Source: Pseudoalteromonas sp. MEBiC 03607
GTDB taxonomy: Bacteria > Pseudomonadota > Gammaproteobacteria > Enterobacterales > Alteromonadaceae
NCBI RefSeq assembly: GCF_004792295.1
Contig: NZ_SRRY01000001.1
Location: 754,501 to 818,500 of the forward strand
Length of the DNA stretch: 64,000 bases
Direction of reading: 5' to 3'
Part shown: positions 3,268 to 11,281 of the stretch, piece after piece
How positions within the stretch are numbered: position 1 is the first letter of the stretch
How the letters are laid out: each line of letters opens with the position of its first letter
Position numbers and translations under genes: made by a program
Notes under the pieces: generated by a model
Seen by the model: the letters and a program-made list of their open reading frames with translations, nothing else
Databases searched by the model: none
What the model was told of the DNA's origin: nothing

Positions 3268-3692
3268 TTCAAAGAGTAAAACAGGCAAAAGTAGAAGTGG
3301 CGGGCGAAGTCGTCGGTGAAATTTCACAAGGTATTTTGCTGCTATTAGGCGTTGAAAAACAGGATACCGAACAAAGCGCTCAGAAGCTTTTACATAAAGT
3401 AAGTAATTACCGAATTTTTACCGATGAACAAGGAAAGATGAATTTAAGCTTGAATGATATCAAGGGTGAACTGTTGGTGGTTTCGCAGTTTACACTAGCC
3501 GCAGACACTAAAAAGGGCATGCGTCCGAGCTTTTCAAGTGCTGGTACGCCTGATCAAGCTAATACGCTCTATGAGTATTTTATCGCTGAAGCTAAAAAAG
3601 CCGGGTTAACAGTAGCCACAGGGCAATTTGGTGCTGATATGCAAGTAAGCCTATGTAACGATGGTCCCGTTACTTTTAATTTATCTGTGTAA
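3255..3692 (+). CDS. dtd: D-aminoacyl-tRNA deacylase
   Basis: A 145-residue cytoplasmic editing enzyme that hydrolyses D-aminoacyl-tRNA (and Gly-tRNA-Ala), protecting translation. The two family signatures are present: SQFTLAA at 77-83, which carries the catalytic threonine, and the C-terminal NDGPVTF block near 135-141. The length is normal for the family. The ATG lies inside the end of the peptidase gene. The stop codon overlaps the first bases of the palindromic repeat that follows. Confidence 0.96.
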   Translation: MQGLIQRVKQAKVEVAGEVVGEISQGILLLLGVEKQDTEQSAQKLLHKVSNYRIFTDEQGKMNLSLNDIKGELLVVSQFTLAADTKKGMRPSFSSAGTPDQANTLYEYFIAEAKKAGLTVATGQFGADMQVSLCNDGPVTFNLSV

Positions 3693-3853
3693 TACCAATC
3701 CGCAATAATACTTAATCATTTTGAGGGATTAAACCTGTCGCTACCTGCGTTAAAAATTTCTCATTTAGAACAACTAAATAACGAAATTTTTGCCTTGTTA
3801 TCAACGAGGTTTTATTGCCTCAAAATAGACTACTTAATTAAGCGGATTGGTAT
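3692..3853. repeat. 162-bp imperfect palindromic intergenic element (MITE-like)
   Basis: The ends are a perfect 12-bp inverted repeat (ATACCAATCCGC at 3692-3703 and GCGGATTGGTAT at 3842-3853). The similarity continues inward over nearly the whole element, for example TTTTGAGG blocks near both ends and AAATTTC/GAAATTT blocks around a centre near 3772. As RNA it would fold into one long hairpin. It sits between convergent genes (dtd and the methyltransferase gene) and its left end includes part of the dtd stop codon. No coding capacity is visible. It resembles non-autonomous palindromic repeats of marine gammaproteobacteria. Confidence 0.8.
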
Positions 3854-5713: not shown

Positions 5714-5761
5714 GCAGTTAAAGTAAGTCAGTTAATACTGCAGTTAAAGCAAGTCAGTTAA
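5714..5761. repeat. Two 22-bp direct repeats at the 3' end of pldA
   Basis: The segments 5714-5735 and 5740-5761 are identical except for one base and are spaced 26 bp apart. The right-hand copy contains the last codons and stop of pldA; the left-hand copy repeats them just outside the gene. This looks like a small tandem duplication. Confidence 0.85.
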
Positions 5762-6781
5762 CAGAATACCCACACCAAAACGTTCAATATCGGCGTTGTA
5801 ATCAATTAAGCTCTCGCCATAACCATTAAAGTATTGTGCGTAACCACGTAATCGGCCCCATAGAGGGAAAGACCAATCTAATTGGATTGCACCACGGTTA
5901 TCTGAATTTAGGTTATTACGGGTCATAAAGCTAAATTCATGCTCGTTATAACGGTATGCACCTGAGAATTCAAAGTAACCCATGTATTTGTAAATATCAG
6001 GGTTGTCATCGCCACGCGCTTCTAATTCATCGTCTTTTTTATCTTCCGGAATTCGGTACCAAGGCTTAAAGCTAAATACAAAGCCGTCTTTTTCCCATAA
6101 GAAATCGGCATAGATACGGTTCCATGAACGTGAATTTGGTTGGCTGCGACCATTAGATTGATGTGATGCACCAATTGCAATTGCCATTTCATCGCCCCAA
6201 AGCACATGCTCAGGATCAAGGTAGTTCACCCAGAAGATCTCTGGTTCGTAGTTTGTTTCACGAAACGGTGATGAAATATCTTTGTTATAAAACTGCCAAA
6301 ACGATTGCATGGTAAACGCAAAGAATACGCCCTGATCTTTATCTGAGAAGCCTTCGAAAATAGGCACTTTAATTGATAGTTGATATTTCACTTCAAGGTT
6401 ATCAAGTGGTTCACCATCAGTTTGCTCAGCAAGATCTTTTAAACCATCAAATGGACGCTCATTCGGATTAGATACATATGAAAGTGGTAAAATGTAGTTA
6501 CGCTTATGAGGAGTGATCACATTACGGTTTTTCTTGCTCACTTCTTCACGGGCTTTACGTTTGTCTAAAGCGGTAAGTTTTTTACTCTCGTCTAAGTCAG
6601 AGCATTTTTTACGAAGTTCTTCGAGTGTTTGTTTGCCGTCACCGCCAATGGCTTCGTTCAAAATACACTGCTTTACGAGTTCTAGCGCGTCATCTTGTTC
6701 ATTGGTTTGTGGTTGTTCAGTTTGAGCAAATACAGGTACAGAAAATAAGCCAGCAGCTGCCAGCCAAATGCGCCATCCCAT
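5744..6781 (-). CDS. pldA: Outer-membrane phospholipase A
   Basis: A 345-residue outer-membrane phospholipase A that hydrolyses phospholipids misplaced in the outer leaflet. A signal peptide (cleavage near VFA-QT) is followed by a polar, Lys/Glu-rich stretch of about 70 residues that is longer than in E. coli, then the 12-strand barrel. The active-site segment ASHQSNGRSQ holds His207 and Ser209, and Asn221 lies 14 residues after the His, the spacing seen for H142/S144/N156 in E. coli. The last residue is Leu where outer-membrane barrels normally end in Phe, and the 3' end is duplicated just outside the gene. Confidence 0.92.
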   Translation of the reverse strand: MGWRIWLAAAGLFSVPVFAQTEQPQTNEQDDALELVKQCILNEAIGGDGKQTLEELRKKCSDLDESKKLTALDKRKAREEVSKKNRNVITPHKRNYILPLSYVSNPNERPFDGLKDLAEQTDGEPLDNLEVKYQLSIKVPIFEGFSDKDQGVFFAFTMQSFWQFYNKDISSPFRETNYEPEIFWVNYLDPEHVLWGDEMAIAIGASHQSNGRSQPNSRSWNRIYADFLWEKDGFVFSFKPWYRIPEDKKDDELEARGDDNPDIYKYMGYFEFSGAYRYNEHEFSFMTRNNLNSDNRGAIQLDWSFPLWGRLRGYAQYFNGYGESLIDYNADIERFGVGILLTDLL

Positions 6782-6885
6782 TGCAGTTCCCTTTTGAATA
6801 GACTTATAAGTAAGAATAATTATAACGATTTTTACATAAGTAACCGTGAACTTATACTGAATTGTTGATATTTTAGGTAAATAGA

Positions 6886-6910
6886 GAGCCCCAAGCTAAG
6901 CTTGGAGCCC
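6886..6910 (-). terminator. Terminator of the lysine-riboswitch gene cluster
   Basis: On the minus strand an 11-bp stem (GGGCTCCAAGC/GCTTGGGGCTC, two G-U pairs, 3-nt loop) is followed by a pyrimidine-rich TCTATTT. A second small stem (GACGGC/GCCGTC at 6917-6940) sits between it and the end of the M14 gene. The weak T tract lowers confidence. Confidence 0.6.
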
Positions 6911-6968
6911 TGCTGTGACGGCCTAAGGGCATAAGCCGTCGACTCTCACGCAATGAGAAGGGGTGAGC

Positions 6969-8087
6969 TTATAGCTCAAATACGTTGGTAAAAAACTTAT
7001 AAAGTTCGGTGCCTTGATTCACGCTTGCTGAGGCAAAATGCAAAATAGCGATGGCGTCTTTATCAAAACTCAATGTTTGTAGTGGCTGCTCAGAAAGGTA
7101 GCGCTCCATTCGTAAAATATGAGCAATTGGTTCGCCTGCTTTTATATGGCCACCGAGTGGTGCAAGGTATTCTACCATGCCACCCATAGGTGCGTAGTAA
7201 GCTACATAATCTTCAAGCATACATGCATAGCGTGTCATCGCTTTAGGTTGATATGCGGCATTAACCAATACCTCTTTATGATTGAGGTAACTTAAAATGC
7301 TATTGGCGTCTTCAAGGGCTGCACTTAAATCGATTTTTTCTTGGCTACCAAGTTCAACGGTAAATGCTTCGACTTGAACTGCAAATTCACGGCCTTGTTT
7401 GGCAAGCTCTTCAGATAACGACCACCACGGGCAGAAACTCGCTTCATCCATTGCGCCATCAAAATCACTTGGGATCAATAACACATGTTCGATGTTGAAA
7501 TAGCTCGCGCTGGCTTTGGCGTATTGGGGGCAGTATAAATGCTTACTTGAGATAGGCCCGGTGTGAAGGTCTAAAACAATATCAGCCTGATGGGCAAGCT
7601 TTTGCAAGTTAAGTGCAATGCGCTTACCCGTTGTTAAGCTGTAATCTGGGCCCGTTAATTGGCTGTCGATGTCAGCAACGAGTGCCTGTTTAAACGCAGC
7701 TTTAAGGGTCGCATCATCACTGTCTTTATGCTGTTCAGCAATCTGTGACGGTAACGCTTTATTAAAGCGGTACATGCGGTTCCAGTTGGTGCCAGTAATT
7801 GGATCGAAGCGACCTAAAGTAAACTCACCTGACTTTTGATTACAACCAATTGGGTTGGCATAAGGCACTAGGGTAATATCGCCACGCAGCTTGAGTGATT
7901 TTAGCTGCTCAAGCAATTGATAAATTACAGCGTTACCTTGTACTTCAGCACCGTGCATATTAGCTTGTATATACACGTTTGGCCCTGTGTCATCGCCTTT
8001 TAAACGATACACAGGAATTGTCAGTGGTAGGCCGTTGGCAATTTCGCCAACCACAATATTCTCTTGGCTGATTAACTCTTTACTCAT
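6969..8087 (-). CDS. AstE/AotO-like M14 family deacylase (desuccinylase/aspartoacylase superfamily)
   Basis: A 372-residue zinc-dependent deacylase. The zinc ligands are visible as NMHGAEVQG (His45, Glu48) and DLHTGP (His175), and a likely catalytic Glu is in AFTVELGSQ (Glu245). Family members remove succinyl or acetyl groups from amino acids. The sequence looks closer to the AotO-like subgroup than to AstE itself and is longer than AstE. It is the last gene of the dapA-dapD-lysA-like set, 5 bp after the decarboxylase gene, so a substrate in the DAP/lysine branch is suggested; desuccinylation of N-succinyl-LL-DAP in place of DapE is possible but unproven. Confidence 0.8.
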   Translation of the reverse strand: MSKELISQENIVVGEIANGLPLTIPVYRLKGDDTGPNVYIQANMHGAEVQGNAVIYQLLEQLKSLKLRGDITLVPYANPIGCNQKSGEFTLGRFDPITGTNWNRMYRFNKALPSQIAEQHKDSDDATLKAAFKQALVADIDSQLTGPDYSLTTGKRIALNLQKLAHQADIVLDLHTGPISSKHLYCPQYAKASASYFNIEHVLLIPSDFDGAMDEASFCPWWSLSEELAKQGREFAVQVEAFTVELGSQEKIDLSAALEDANSILSYLNHKEVLVNAAYQPKAMTRYACMLEDYVAYYAPMGGMVEYLAPLGGHIKAGEPIAHILRMERYLSEQPLQTLSFDKDAIAILHFASASVNQGTELYKFFTNVFEL

Positions 8088-8092
8088 GGTGA

Positions 8093-9298
8093 TTACCTTA
8101 AATAATAGCTGGCATCTTCAGCGCTACGAATGCACTCAATATTGCCTTGTTCAAGGATGTATTCAGCCGCTAATTCGTGGCATAAAAAGTACGGCATACT
8201 TTCGGTAAAGCCATACGCGCCACATTGGCTGAATACCAACCAGTCTTGCTCACTTAAATCACTAGCTAGTTGGTGCTCACCTAAGCAATCAAGTGCAGTG
8301 CAAAGCGGGCCATATAAAGTCATTGCTGCAGGCTCAGCCGTTGACTCACGCAGTAACGCCGCAGGAAAATCTTGGCTTGTCACAGCAGGGCGAAGTAAAT
8401 GGTTAATACCGCCTGATAAAATCACCTGCTGTTGATTGTAATTTTCTTTGCGTTCAACAACCGGTGTGGCGTAATGGCCGCATTCGCCCACCGCATAGCG
8501 GCCAAGTTCCATCCAAAGCTCTTTGACACCGGCATCTGCTTTAATACTCGCCAGAGTCTCGATAAGTGCAGACCAATCGAGTCGGTTAGCATCTTGAGTA
8601 TAAGGAATGCCTAAGCCACCCCCTAAATCGAGAATATTAAGGTTAATATTTAATGCACTTGCTAGTTGTTGTAATGGCGCAATCATCGCACGCCATAGCT
8701 CGGCGAGTTTGTCAGTGCTCAGCATATTGCCCCATTGGAAAATATGCAGGCCATCAAAGTTAAGAGCAGTGTAATCACTTACTGTGAGCGCTTGCCACTC
8801 ATCACAGCCCAAACCAAAAGGAGTAAGGCTATCGCCGCCAAGTGGGTTCTTTTCGCTGTCTGGCCAACGAAGTTGTACACGCAACAGAACTTGCAGCTGA
8901 CAATTTGCTTTTGTTGCTTGCTCATTTAACCAGCGAACTTGGTTTATGCTCTCGGCCACGAAGGTACGTACGCCGCGAGCAATAAAATGTGAAATTTGTG
9001 CAGGGCTCTTTGCAGGCCCTGTGTTGAGCACGCGCTCGCTATCGATGCCTTGGGCAAGTACTTGCTCAAGTTCACCTTTACTCGCAACATCAAAATTAAA
9101 CCCTGCGCTGTCTAAACATTGAATAATGCGAGACAGCGGGTTGGCCTTAACGGCATACCAAAGTTTCACATCGGTTTGCGCAGTTAATTGATTTAAATGT
9201 GCAGTTAATTTATCTAAATCATAGATAAAAAATGGCGTATCAAGATGTGTTGAAACTTGTTCAACCGCTTGCTTGATGGGCGTGCTCAAAAAGCTCAT
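8093..9298 (-). CDS. Diaminopimelate decarboxylase-like PLP enzyme
   Basis: A 401-residue fold-type III (alanine-racemase fold) PLP decarboxylase. The lysine for the PLP aldimine is in YAVKAN (Lys51). GGGLGIPY is the phosphate loop, and GPLCTALD and GAYGFTES line the active site of DAP decarboxylases. Two blocks are atypical: HIFQWGNML stands where LysA has HxHIGSQ, and ELGRY replaces EPGR. It may therefore be a divergent LysA or act on a related amino acid. The start codon overlaps the dapD stop by 1 nt (TAATG), indicating tight coupling. The riboswitch upstream of the cluster favours lysine formation. Confidence 0.75.
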   Translation of the reverse strand: MSFLSTPIKQAVEQVSTHLDTPFFIYDLDKLTAHLNQLTAQTDVKLWYAVKANPLSRIIQCLDSAGFNFDVASKGELEQVLAQGIDSERVLNTGPAKSPAQISHFIARGVRTFVAESINQVRWLNEQATKANCQLQVLLRVQLRWPDSEKNPLGGDSLTPFGLGCDEWQALTVSDYTALNFDGLHIFQWGNMLSTDKLAELWRAMIAPLQQLASALNINLNILDLGGGLGIPYTQDANRLDWSALIETLASIKADAGVKELWMELGRYAVGECGHYATPVVERKENYNQQQVILSGGINHLLRPAVTSQDFPAALLRESTAEPAAMTLYGPLCTALDCLGEHQLASDLSEQDWLVFSQCGAYGFTESMPYFLCHELAAEYILEQGNIECIRSAEDASYYLR

Positions 9299-10038
9299 TA
9301 ACGTAAAACCTCTTCTAACAATAATGATGCATCGCTTTGTTCGTCACGGTATTTCACGATCAATGCACAAGACATGCTTAAACCTTGCTCGCGAGCCCAT
9401 GCATTTGAAGCAGGGCGAGAACCTGGGATTACAATCGCGTTTTCTGGAATTGCTTCACCTTTGTTTAGCTGGCGCTCATTAACACAATCGTAGACAGGAA
9501 TAGTTGCAGATAAGCGCACACCCGGCGCAAGTACAGCACCTTTTTTCACAACCACACCTTCAACAATAACGCAGCCTGCACCGATGAAAGCGTCATCTTC
9601 AATAACCACAGGGCTGGCACCAATTGGCTCAAGCACGCCACCTAACTGTACTGCTGCACTTAGGTGAACATTTTTACCTACTTGTGCGCATGAACCCACT
9701 AATGCGTGACTGTCGACCATCGTACCTTCGTCGATGAATGCGCCAATATTTACATACGCTGGTGGCATGATTATCGTGCCTTTAGCAACGTGTGCGCCAC
9801 GACGAACACTGCTACCACCTGGTACCATACGCACGCCGGCATTTGCAGCAAAGCCCTGTGGTGCTAGGTTGTGCTTATCCACAAAACCACCCGGGAACTC
9901 GGTGTTAGTACCATTTTTGAAGGCTTCTAAAATGCCTTGTTTAACTTCAACGTTGGCATGCCAGTTGCCATTTTCGTCTTGTGTTGCTGCGCGCACTGCG
10001 CCCGATTCTAAGTTGTTTAATAATTCTAACCAGCTCAT
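9298..10038 (-). CDS. dapD: Tetrahydrodipicolinate N-succinyltransferase, short and divergent
   Basis: A cytoplasmic left-handed beta-helix acyltransferase that succinylates tetrahydrodipicolinate in the succinylase branch of DAP/lysine synthesis. The hexapeptide repeats and family blocks are clear (GTMVDSHALVGSCAQVGKN; GGVLEPIGASP; IEDDAFIGAG). It has about 246 residues against 274 for the E. coli enzyme, and the C-terminal helix region differs, so it is probably not the standard housekeeping type. I chose the ATG at 10038, 14 bp after the dapA stop, with ACAGG in front; an in-frame TTG 24 bp upstream is possible. Confidence 0.85.
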   Translation of the reverse strand: MSWLELLNNLESGAVRAATQDENGNWHANVEVKQGILEAFKNGTNTEFPGGFVDKHNLAPQGFAANAGVRMVPGGSSVRRGAHVAKGTIIMPPAYVNIGAFIDEGTMVDSHALVGSCAQVGKNVHLSAAVQLGGVLEPIGASPVVIEDDAFIGAGCVIVEGVVVKKGAVLAPGVRLSATIPVYDCVNERQLNKGEAIPENAIVIPGSRPASNAWAREQGLSMSCALIVKYRDEQSDASLLLEEVLR

Positions 10039-10052
10039 GATAAAACCTGTTT

Positions 10053-10937
10053 TTAGTTCCAAGATAAAATTGTGTTGTTTGCGTGGGTGATGCTGTCTGT
10101 TTGCTCTAGCTCTAAATGCGTAAGCGGCGGACGTAAATGCGGGGTATTTATTTTACCTTGCAGGTGCATCAGTACTTTTACGGGGATTGGATTTGCGACA
10201 GCAAATAAGCTTTGAATCGCTTGCGACCAATCGGTGAATAGATTTGGATATTGACCACTTAAACTGCGTTTAACAAACTCATGGGTTTGACTCGGCCAAG
10301 CATTTGCGGCAACCGAAACTAAGCCTTTTGCACCCGCTTGAGCAAAATACGGCATAAGTGCATCATCACCACTGAAGATAGCCAGTGTTGGTGACGCCGT
10401 TCTAAAGCCTTCAAATTTGCTAATGTCACCACTGGCTTCTTTCAAAGCCCAAAGGTTTTTGTGCTCAGCAAGGTTTTTGATCACCTGCGGTGAGATCTCA
10501 ACTGCGCTACGTCCTGGTACGTTATACAACATACAAGGGTGATGGCTTGCGTTAAGTAGGCTTTCAAACCAATGTGTTTGGCCAACAACCCCAGGCTTTG
10601 CGTACAGAGGTGAACCTAACAGGTAGCCATGAATAGGTAGTTGGTTGCAGTATTCAACCCAAGCAATTTGCTGCTTAAGGTTCATGCCGCCCACAGCAAC
10701 CATGAGTGGTACAGTCGGTGCTAATTGGCAAACATGCTCAACAATGGCTTGTTGCTCTTTGAGTGAAAGCGCCAGTCCTTCACCGGTACTGCCAAGCAAT
10801 AAAATGCCGTTATTTGCATCTTGCTGCTCAGCGACCAGTTGTCCAAGGGCCGTATAATCGACCTCGCCAGATTCAGAAAATGGCGTGACAAGCGCTGTCC
10901 ATAGTGGATAGTCGTTTAAATCAAAATTGTTGATCAT
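10053..10937 (-). CDS. dapA: 4-Hydroxy-tetrahydrodipicolinate synthase
   Basis: A 294-residue class I aldolase (TIM barrel) that condenses pyruvate with aspartate semialdehyde, the first committed step to DAP and lysine. The family motifs are in place: GSTGEG, YNVPGRS (arginine for the substrate carboxylate) and LKEASGD with the Schiff-base lysine. It is the first gene after the lysine riboswitch and is followed by dapD. The ribosome binding site is weak: GAGAG directly touches the ATG, and it can pair with an upstream CTCTTCGAA, so translation may be controlled. It could be a second DapA beside a housekeeping copy elsewhere. Confidence 0.88.
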   Translation of the reverse strand: MINNFDLNDYPLWTALVTPFSESGEVDYTALGQLVAEQQDANNGILLLGSTGEGLALSLKEQQAIVEHVCQLAPTVPLMVAVGGMNLKQQIAWVEYCNQLPIHGYLLGSPLYAKPGVVGQTHWFESLLNASHHPCMLYNVPGRSAVEISPQVIKNLAEHKNLWALKEASGDISKFEGFRTASPTLAIFSGDDALMPYFAQAGAKGLVSVAANAWPSQTHEFVKRSLSGQYPNLFTDWSQAIQSLFAVANPIPVKVLMHLQGKINTPHLRPPLTHLELEQTDSITHANNTILSWN

Positions 10938-10967
10938 CTCTCACGAACTTATAAGGTATTCGAAGAG
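10938..10967 (-). promoter_or_regulatory. Possible start-codon-sequestering hairpin of dapA
   Basis: CTCTTCGAA (10959-10967) can pair with TTCGTGAGAG (10938-10947) right before the ATG through CTCT/AGAG and CGAA/TTCG. A near copy of CTCTTCGAAT...ACCTT lies upstream at 11013-11030. The pairing is visible; its use as the riboswitch expression platform is inferred. Confidence 0.4.
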
Positions 10968-11078
10968 TTTATGCGGGAGCAATTGAATGGAGCCGCATGT
11001 CGTCGTTCGAACAAGGTATAATTCGAAGAGCGAATGGGCTTAAAATAATAAAGACGCAACGGCCTTATTATACTAAGA

Positions 11079-11267
11079 CCAGAAGCTCTCCACCAAACTA
11101 ATCAATAGCGTTTTGCTATTGTTGGTGACAGTCGCTGGGATTCAGCCCAGTCGCCCGAAATAAGCACCTCACAAACGGTGTTACTTCTCGGCGTTAATTC
11201 CCCTCACGTATGATCAACAGAGTCTGTGCTCCTCCTATACGCTACCTGAATAACGCACCTCTTCCAG
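11079..11267 (-). promoter_or_regulatory. Lysine riboswitch (L box)
   Basis: Read on the minus strand, the conserved core of the lysine riboswitch appears in the right order: AGAGGTGCG, GGAGGAGC, TGAGGGGAA, CGCCGAGAAG, GGGCTGAATCCC, CTGTCACC and finally GGTGGAGAGCTTCTGG. P1 closes as CTGGAAG with CTTCTGG. The last stem can compete with a following stem (GGTCTTA/TAAGGCC at 11061-11080). The dapA start lies about 140 nt downstream. High lysine is expected to lower expression of the dapA-dapD-lysA-like-M14 cluster. Confidence 0.95.
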
Positions 11268-11281
11268 CCCTTTATGCTCGC

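What the first reader, a model, noticed from the sequence alone, without database searches (positions are those of the whole stretch)
6969..11267. Lysine-riboswitch-controlled cluster with a divergent DapD, a LysA-like enzyme and an AstE/AotO-like desuccinylase
A textbook lysine riboswitch precedes dapA, dapD, a DAP-decarboxylase-like gene and an M14 desuccinylase, all tightly spaced and ended by a hairpin. DapD is about 28 residues shorter than the E. coli enzyme, the decarboxylase lacks the usual HxHIGSQ and EPGR blocks, and the last enzyme is a desuccinylase where DapE would be expected. Known: DapD adds and DapE removes the succinyl group in this branch. Inference: the M14 enzyme may replace DapE, making this a self-contained alternative lysine branch, or the set may make a lysine-related metabolite.
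Basis: partly seen in the sequence, partly recalled or inferred. Interest (0 to 1): 0.75.

Follow-up and report, generated by a model that had tools for sequence, protein, structure and literature searches.

The report
Lysine-switched second lysine-making gene set
A marine bacterium carries, besides its ordinary lysine genes, a second lysine-controlled gene set whose decarboxylase and desuccinylase may make lysine by a route that skips the usual last steps; the set recurs in several bacterial groups, but the chemistry is untested.

Summary
A full-length lysine riboswitch (RF00168, 91 bits) precedes dapA, a short dapD (here DapDx), a LysA-like decarboxylase (DCX) and an M14 AstE/AspA-type desuccinylase, 14, -1 and 5 nt apart. 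The genome (Pseudoalteromonas) also has canonical dapD, two dapE and lysA, so nothing is replaced: this is a second, lysine-switched set.
DapDx occurs in 28 of 98 family genomes, each time followed by DCX and M14; the riboswitch is there in 26 of 28. DapDx-DCX recur in riboswitch-led lysine operons of Psychrobium-like and Francisellaceae-type genomes; M14 alone follows riboswitch-lysC in Shewanella-like ones.
DCX is not LysA: it fails the LysA cut-off and forms its own clade. It keeps LysA's Arg-Pro that holds DAP's distal carboxylate (no other paralogue checked has that pair), but has threonine where LysA's glutamate holds the distal amine.
Best reading (0.40): DCX decarboxylates N-succinyl-LL-DAP and M14 frees lysine, bypassing DapE, DapF, LysA and meso-DAP. 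Against it, M14 also occurs without DCX and may act first, as a second DapE. The operon was listed in 2017 (PMC5584792); this reinterpretation was not found in the searches run.

The parts
11075..11271 (-). lysine riboswitch aptamer (RF00168)
   Evidence: cmscan 91.4 bits, full model 1-182, gathering 30; same element directly before the operon in 25 of 27 fetched family loci that carry DCX and 8 of 8 named loci tested of 80
10937..11074 (-). leader between aptamer and dapA; possible expression platform, mechanism not resolved
   Evidence: AU-rich hairpin after the aptamer folds no better than shuffles (z -0.76), the whole 139 nt better (z -3.18)
10053..10937 (-). dapA, 4-hydroxy-tetrahydrodipicolinate synthase (whether a second dapA exists was not tested)
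   Evidence: TIGR00674 265.9 bits over cut-off 206.15; PDB DHDPS matches
9298..10038 (-). DapDx, short THDP N-succinyltransferase-like enzyme
   Evidence: NF008808 294.3 bits over cut-off 204; TIGR00965 183.6 bits under cut-off 375.4; 41% identical to the canonical DapD of the same genome, 65% to a Francisellaceae-type copy
8093..9298 (-). DCX, PLP decarboxylase of the LysA/BtrK kind, not a canonical LysA
   Evidence: TIGR01048 200.7 bits under cut-off 297.9; TIGR03099 209.3 under 478.45; own clade 100/100 against LysA; K51, R267, R303, T334 in 145 of 145; R303-P304 shared with LysA only among the rows compared
6969..8087 (-). M14 AstE/AspA-type zinc desuccinylase
   Evidence: PF24827 96.9 bits; PDB 3fmc 444 bits and 3lwu 434 bits; H45, E48 conserved in 41 of 41 rows that cover them, H175 and E245 in 42 of 42
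6870..6968 (-). two stable hairpins after the last gene, possible transcript end
   Evidence: -40.6 kcal/mol, z -4.86; not listed by the terminator scan

Best explanation
A lysine-repressed, lysine-only side branch beside the standing DAP pathway. Low lysine switches the operon on (inferred from the riboswitch class). DapA feeds THDP (DapB shared); DapDx puts a succinyl group on it; a shared aminotransferase gives N-succinyl-LL-DAP. DCX then removes the carboxylate at the free amino end, giving N2-succinyl-L-lysine, and M14 hydrolyses the succinyl group to release lysine. DapE, DapF, LysA and meso-DAP are bypassed, so lysine supply is uncoupled from the cell-wall DAP pool. Shown: genes, order, riboswitch, conservation, residues. 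Inferred: every reaction, the acyl group, and the order of the last two steps. M14 must also have a use without DCX, probably on N-succinyl-LL-DAP itself.
For: Riboswitch directly upstream in 26 of 28 family genomes that carry DCX, own included. A dapD scan of 98 genomes lists 28 DapDx, and all 28 sit in the DCX-M14 cluster. DapDx-DCX recur together in Psychrobium-like (riboswitch-lysC-dapA-DapDx-DCX-M14) and Francisellaceae-type operons (riboswitch-lysC-dapB-dapA-DapDx-DCX), the latter with an aminotransferase close by, in L170 right after DCX and in L171 behind its own riboswitch. Residues: in the T. maritima LysA, Arg249 and Arg285 bind the distal carboxylate and Glu315 the distal amine, and its E315T mutant lost most DAP activity and acts mainly on 2-aminopimelate, which lacks that amine (PMC8277567, abstract and passages). 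DCX has R267, R303 (same spacing of 36) and T334, each in 145 of 145. R303-P304 is in 12 of 12 DCX and 4 of 4 LysA rows, while 3 of 33 other paralogues have the Arg and none the Arg-Pro pair, so DCX combines a LysA-type carboxylate site with loss of the amine site, as N-succinyl-LL-DAP would ask. Relatives of DCX decarboxylate N-acylated amino acids (FigC, N-citrylornithine; PMC7857480 passages). DCX was not seen apart from M14 in the family (28 of 28; 33 other below-cut-off LysA-family places checked are not DCX) nor in 7 of 7 Psychrobium-like genomes by coordinates; a decarboxylase with a succinylated product would need such a partner.
Against: Thr at the amine site is not special to DCX: BtrK and 6knh have it in the alignment, and so do 27 of 33 other paralogues, so it says 'no free distal amine' rather than 'N-succinyl-DAP'. 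M14 occurs where DapDx and DCX are absent: riboswitch-dapA-M14 (G003, G052, G087), M14 alone (G012, G046, G084), riboswitch-lysC-M14 (5 of 5 Shewanella-like genomes looked at). Francisellaceae-type operons have DCX but no M14 beside it, and those 3 genomes show no DapE match either, so their desuccinylase is unknown. In the family, of 28 genomes with DCX 28 keep LysA, 27 DapD and 27 DapE over cut-off (the two misses are drafts of 85 and 84% completeness), so no phenotype follows from gene content. DapDx lacks the Arg-Ser-Glu of canonical DapD, so its acyl donor could differ. In the AlphaFold model of DCX the loop with R303 (299-307) has pLDDT under 50, so the model does not support the site. 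No biochemistry.
Confidence: 0.4

Rival explanations
1. Same lysine branch, other order: M14 acts first as a second, riboswitch-controlled DapE (N-succinyl-LL-DAP to LL-DAP), and DCX decarboxylates LL-DAP at its L-centre. DapE, DapF and LysA are still bypassed, LL-DAP is not.
For: M14 is found with riboswitch-dapA or riboswitch-lysC where DCX is absent, so it should have a use on an intermediate of the ordinary succinylase pathway.
Against: DCX lacks the residue that recognises a free distal amine in LysA (PMC8277567). If DCX used LL-DAP it could draw on DapE and would not need M14 next door, yet the two were not seen apart in the family or in the Psychrobium-like genomes.
Confidence: 0.2
2. 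Plain isoenzymes: the cluster is a lysine-switched duplicate of ordinary steps, with M14 a second DapE and DCX a meso-DAP decarboxylase of unusual sequence.
For: NCBIfam names DapDx as DapD over cut-off; PMC5584792 lists the operon as dapA-dapD-lysA (passages); DCX keeps the PLP lysine and the distal-carboxylate Arg-Pro of LysA.
Against: DCX scores 200.7 against a LysA cut-off of 297.9, is 31% identical to the LysA of its own genome, and lacks the PLP-stacking histidine and the distal-amine glutamate in 145 of 145 relatives.
Confidence: 0.2
3. The set makes a different lysine-like metabolite, or M14 salvages N-acyl-lysine, with the riboswitch sensing lysine as precursor or proxy.
For: DCX resembles BtrK and TIGR03099 decarboxylases of other pathways about as much as LysA, and shares the Thr with them; M14 also occurs alone.
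Against: No tailoring, carrier or export gene recurs inside the riboswitch-led unit of the 27 fetched family loci; elsewhere the same DapDx-DCX pair stands in operons with lysC, dapB and dapA, with asd and an aminotransferase beside.
Confidence: 0.14

Closest known systems
Succinylase branch of the DAP lysine pathway (DapD-DapC/ArgD-DapE-DapF-LysA)
   Same: DapA and a DapD-like succinyltransferase, lysine-riboswitch control
   Different: decarboxylase and desuccinylase belong to other subfamilies; both canonical enzymes exist elsewhere in the same genome
Riboswitch operon dapA-dapD-lysA-hypothetical1-hypothetical2 of Pseudoalteromonas, and lysC-dapB-dapA-dapD-lysA of Bacteriovorax marinus (PMC5584792, Table 1, passages)
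   Same: evidently the same operon in Pseudoalteromonas; a protein of another Bacteriovorax (P0112) groups with DCX
   Different: there DCX is called lysA, M14 is 'hypothetical' and the operon is said to be only in Pseudoalteromonas; here it is also found in Colwellia relatives, Psychrobium-like and Francisellaceae-type genomes
BtrK / FigC (FslC) decarboxylases
   Same: LysA-fold PLP decarboxylases acting on modified amino acids; BtrK shares the Thr at the LysA glutamate column
   Different: DCX has the LysA-type Arg-Pro; in the alignment BtrK has an Arg there without Pro and after a 4-residue insertion, and 6knh has its Arg one column earlier
AstE / aspartoacylase family; PDB 3fmc, 3lwu
   Same: PF24827 domain and conserved presumed zinc-site residues
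   Different: no AstE equivalog match in NCBIfam; placed behind a lysine riboswitch

Membership tests
Lysine riboswitch RF00168 | covariance model over gathering score, full length | tested here: met
   91.4 bits, 1-182/182
Diaminopimelate decarboxylase LysA (for DCX) | TIGR01048 over cut-off 297.9 | tested here: not met
   200.7 bits; the own canonical LysA scores 545
Diaminopimelate decarboxylase LysA (for DCX) | PLP lysine, glycine-rich loop and distal-carboxylate arginines | tested here: met
   K51, R267, R303 in 145 of 145, GGGLG; R303-P304 as in 4 of 4 LysA rows
Diaminopimelate decarboxylase LysA (for DCX) | distal-amine glutamate (CES) and HIGSQ histidine | tested here: not met
   T334 and F187 in 145 of 145; Glu and His in 4 of 4 LysA rows
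Diaminopimelate decarboxylase LysA (for DCX) | decarboxylates meso-DAP | not testable with these tools
   needs enzyme assay
DapD N-succinyltransferase (for DapDx) | NF008808 over cut-off 204 | tested here: met
   294.3 bits
DapD N-succinyltransferase (for DapDx) | TIGR00965 over cut-off 375.4 | tested here: not met
   183.6 bits
DapD N-succinyltransferase (for DapDx) | acidic active-site residues (M. bovis Asp141 and Glu189, recalled) | tested here: inconclusive
   the Asp in GTMVD is kept; the aligned RSE is G[VC][VI] in 28 of 28
DapE (for M14) | M20 DapE model TIGR01246 | tested here: not met
   no M20 or DapE model among its matches at E 0.001; PF24827 instead
AstE/AspA family (for M14) | PF24827 catalytic domain and zinc-site residues | tested here: met
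   96.9 bits over 25; H45, E48, H175, E245 (roles recalled)
AstE equivalog (N-succinylglutamate) | NCBIfam equivalog over cut-off | tested here: not met
   only DoeB TIGR02994, 35 bits, cut-off 402.7
BtrK-like TIGR03099 (for DCX) | over cut-off 478.45 | tested here: not met
   209.3 bits

The most novel reading that the evidence does not exclude
A lysine pathway in which decarboxylation precedes deacylation: N-succinyl-LL-DAP to N2-succinyl-lysine to lysine. Lysine is then made without free DAP and is switched separately from cell-wall DAP. Going by DCX, it would be spread over at least Alteromonadaceae, Psychrobium-like bacteria, Francisellaceae and Bacteriovorax.
Probability: 0.39. Interest if true: 0.82.

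Novelty: new variant of a known kind. Interest (0 to 1): 0.62.

Why it matters
In the textbook DAP pathway lysine is made from the cell-wall precursor meso-DAP. A dedicated branch that leaves before DAP would let bacteria tune lysine without draining wall synthesis. It would also mean that genes now named lysA and dapD in these operons are something else, and that M14 enzymes of known structure but no stated function (3fmc, 3lwu) gain a testable substrate. DapE and LysA are discussed as drug targets (abstracts in the listings), so a bypass matters for that too. A search of the held library for six names of N-succinyl-lysine or a succinyl-DAP decarboxylase found no paper; lysine riboswitch with Pseudoalteromonas gave five, of which by its listing only PMC5584792 is on the topic.

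Tried and rejected
Rejected: M14 as replacement of a missing DapE, because DapE is present. Rejected: loss of canonical LysA where DCX occurs; LysA is over cut-off in 96 of 98 family genomes, including all 28 with DCX, and in 16 of 17 others tested (the exception G553 is a 450-contig draft). Rejected: phospholipase A as a member; it follows in the same direction in 58 of 80 named loci and is next to M14 in 2 of 40 fetched family loci. Rejected: 'only in Pseudoalteromonas' (PMC5584792), contradicted. Withdrawn on checking: the claim that BtrK lacks an Arg at the R303 column, and the weight first put on T334 as special to DCX; the Arg-Pro comparison partly makes up for it, so the best reading went from 0.42 to 0.40 and 'other product' from 0.12 to 0.14.

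Led nowhere: literature on Francisella lysine genes (the one desuccinylase mention is a DUF1826 protein); folds of the leader gave no clear expression platform.

Rows left out: context was read for 41 of the 59 family genomes with an M14 match, own included; the other 18 have 45-49% identity, and 17 of them show no lysine riboswitch in the stricter-filter scan. Of 20 order-level genomes outside the family with an M14 match, 10 had the M14 region fetched and 14 were searched for LysA and DapE together with the three Francisellaceae-type ones. In L180 no DapDx ORF was called, though a 775-nt gap of the right size is there; in L177 (G536) M14 was placed by the coordinates only. The tree leaves out G054 and G536. 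The family was not scanned with the DCX profile; of the LysA-family matches below cut-off (list cut at its low end), the 33 outside the cluster in other genomes were fetched and are 25-34% identical to their nearest DCX row, without the HxFQWGN motif, and the own one on C2 was compared.
Full report
What is there. On the minus strand, a full-length lysine riboswitch (11271-11075, 91.4 bits) is followed by dapA (10937-10053), DapDx (10038-9298), DCX (9298-8093) and M14 (8087-6969), spaced 14, -1 and 5 nt apart, then by two stable hairpins. NCBIfam supports DapA (265.9 bits, cut-off 206.15) and DapD (NF008808 294.3, cut-off 204; but TIGR00965 only 183.6, cut-off 375.4). It does not support LysA for DCX (200.7, cut-off 297.9). 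M14 has the AstE/AspA catalytic domain (96.9 bits); its nearest solved structures by sequence are 3fmc and 3lwu (444 and 434 bits), one named only as putative.

The genome. The window lies in a 4.56 Mb genome of two contigs, rated 100% complete. The nearest named records are Pseudoalteromonas shioyasakiensis and P. lipolytica relatives (DCX 98-99% identical). It also encodes canonical LysA (545 bits, beside a gene that looks like dapF by recall), canonical DapD (479 bits) and two DapE over cut-off (560 and 379 bits). A second lysine riboswitch stands before a lysine-sensitive aspartokinase gene. The cluster is therefore an extra, lysine-switched set.

Spread within the family. In 98 family genomes the canonical models are nearly universal: LysA over cut-off in 96, DapD in 91, DapE in 96. 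M14 relatives occur in 59. The dapD scan lists 28 DapDx matches of 177-202 bits, in 28 genomes, and one cut-off piece of a canonical dapD at a contig end (G048, 220 bits). Reading the loci, all 28 (27 fetched plus the window) have DapDx-DCX-M14 adjacent and co-directional. dapA of this type precedes DapDx in 22 of 28, and the riboswitch is present in 26 of 28; the two without it (G038, G078) also lack this dapA. Among 80 named loci (Pseudoalteromonas, Colwellia, Cognaticolwellia; 162 found, best 80 kept) 80 have dapA-DapDx-DCX-M14 in order, and 8 of 8 tested have the riboswitch before dapA.

Variants. G003, G052 and G087 have riboswitch-dapA-M14. G012, G046 and G084 have M14 without the rest. 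G036 and G077 have riboswitch-lysC and a 40% identical M14. Three f196 genomes looked at have riboswitch-lysC-dapA-(DapDx)-DCX-M14, and 7 of 7 f196 genomes show a LysA-family match below cut-off directly beside M14 by coordinates. f196 is Psychrobium-like: one DCX sits at zero distance from a Psychrobium protein. In a class-wide scan at E 1e-60, 4 of 369 genomes matched the DCX profile: the own one and three of f51. f51 is Francisellaceae-type: the named proteins nearest to one of its DCX are from Francisella species, 54-67% identical. These three carry riboswitch-lysC-dapB-dapA-DapDx-DCX, an aminotransferase close by (directly after DCX in L170, behind a second riboswitch in L171, beyond asd in L169), a separate LysA (387-397 bits), no M14 beside DCX, and no DapE match at E 1e-20. 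A Bacteriovorax protein also groups with DCX, and PMC5584792 lists lysC-dapB-dapA-dapD-lysA for Bacteriovorax marinus (passages).

Evolution. DCX rows and LysA rows separate with 100/100 support (12 and 4 rows). DapDx is 65% identical between the window and a Francisellaceae-type genome but 41% to the canonical DapD of its own genome, so DapDx and DCX seem to have travelled as a pair. In the M14 tree (49 rows, midpoint root) rows without DCX are nested among rows with it inside a supported family clade (25 with, 6 without, 100/99). Either M14 outlived DCX more than once or the DapDx-DCX pair was inserted before M14 more than once; the tree does not decide. DCX apart from M14 was not seen in the family: 33 other below-cut-off LysA-family places are not DCX.

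Active sites. In the T. maritima LysA, Arg249 (of EPGR) and Arg285 bind the distal carboxylate of DAP, Glu315 binds the distal amine, and His179 stacks on PLP; E315T lost most DAP activity and acts mainly on 2-aminopimelate (PMC8277567, abstract and passages; that Arg249 is the Arg of EPGR is my reading of its number and Glu246). By alignment with LysA these are R267, R303, T334 and F187 in DCX, and each is the same in 145 of 145 sequences (28 cluster members and the 117 of 120 listed homologues that have 380 aa or more). Both arginine pairs are 36 residues apart. A comparison with 33 other paralogues and 4 LysA shows what is special: R267 is general; T334 is shared by 27 of 33 paralogues (and by BtrK and 6knh); F187 by 19 of 33; but R303-P304 is found in 12 of 12 DCX and 4 of 4 LysA, with Arg in only 3 of 33 others and Arg-Pro in none; W189 is in DCX only. 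So DCX joins a LysA-type distal-carboxylate site to a site without the amine-binding Glu, as N-succinyl-LL-DAP would ask. This is inference; the T. maritima numbers were mapped through other LysA rows, not a direct alignment. DapDx has lost the RSE of canonical DapD (28 of 28 read G[VC][VI]), so the acyl group is an inference too. M14 keeps its presumed zinc and catalytic residues (roles recalled).

Mechanism. The best reading is a lysine-repressed branch ending N-succinyl-LL-DAP, N2-succinyl-lysine, lysine (0.40). The asymmetry (DCX not seen without M14 in these families, M14 often without DCX) fits a decarboxylase with a succinylated product and a desuccinylase that also takes N-succinyl-LL-DAP; the Francisellaceae-type operons, with DCX and no M14 beside it, do not fit so simply. 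Rivals: M14 first with an LL-DAP decarboxylase (0.2), plain isoenzymes (0.2), another product (0.14). That the operon yields lysine by one of the first three is the firmer claim (about 0.8).

Novelty. The Pseudoalteromonas operon is in print as dapA-dapD-lysA-hypothetical1-hypothetical2 and said to be present only in that genus (PMC5584792, passages). The identity of DCX as a non-LysA, the M14 link to the lysine riboswitch across families and the bypass proposal were not found in the searches run (listings of open-licence PMC papers only). I call it a new variant of a known kind.

Noticed in passing
L169, L170, L171 (Francisellaceae-type genomes G284, G146, G389): A lysine operon with DapDx and DCX, but no DapE match in any of the 3 genomes at E 1e-20: who removes the succinyl group, also for cell-wall DAP, is open.
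   Followed up: partly
L171:1970-2149 and 3538-3717: Two lysine riboswitches in tandem, the first before an aminotransferase, the second before lysC-dapB-dapA-DapDx-DCX.
   Followed up: no
L172, L175, L176, L179, L181: Riboswitch-lysC-M14 in Shewanella-like genomes, giving context to the uncharacterised PDB entries 3fmc and 3lwu (their organism is recalled).
   Followed up: partly
G000:C1:2992360-2993469 (L188:9349-10527): A second DapE over cut-off (378.7 bits) in the own genome, not in this cluster; 28 of 98 family genomes show two or more DapE matches.
   Followed up: no
window 9298-10038: DapDx reads GAG[VC][VI] where canonical DapD has GARSE; its acyl donor may differ.
   Followed up: partly
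window 5744-6781: A phospholipase A1 gene follows the cluster in the same direction in 58 of 80 named loci; possibly the 'hypothetical2' of the 2017 table, not part of the conserved set.
   Followed up: partly
16 of the 40 family loci, for example L062:724-2112: A DsbA/HCCA-isomerase-like gene (name recalled) precedes the riboswitch or M14 in the same direction; whether it has to do with the cluster is open.
   Followed up: no
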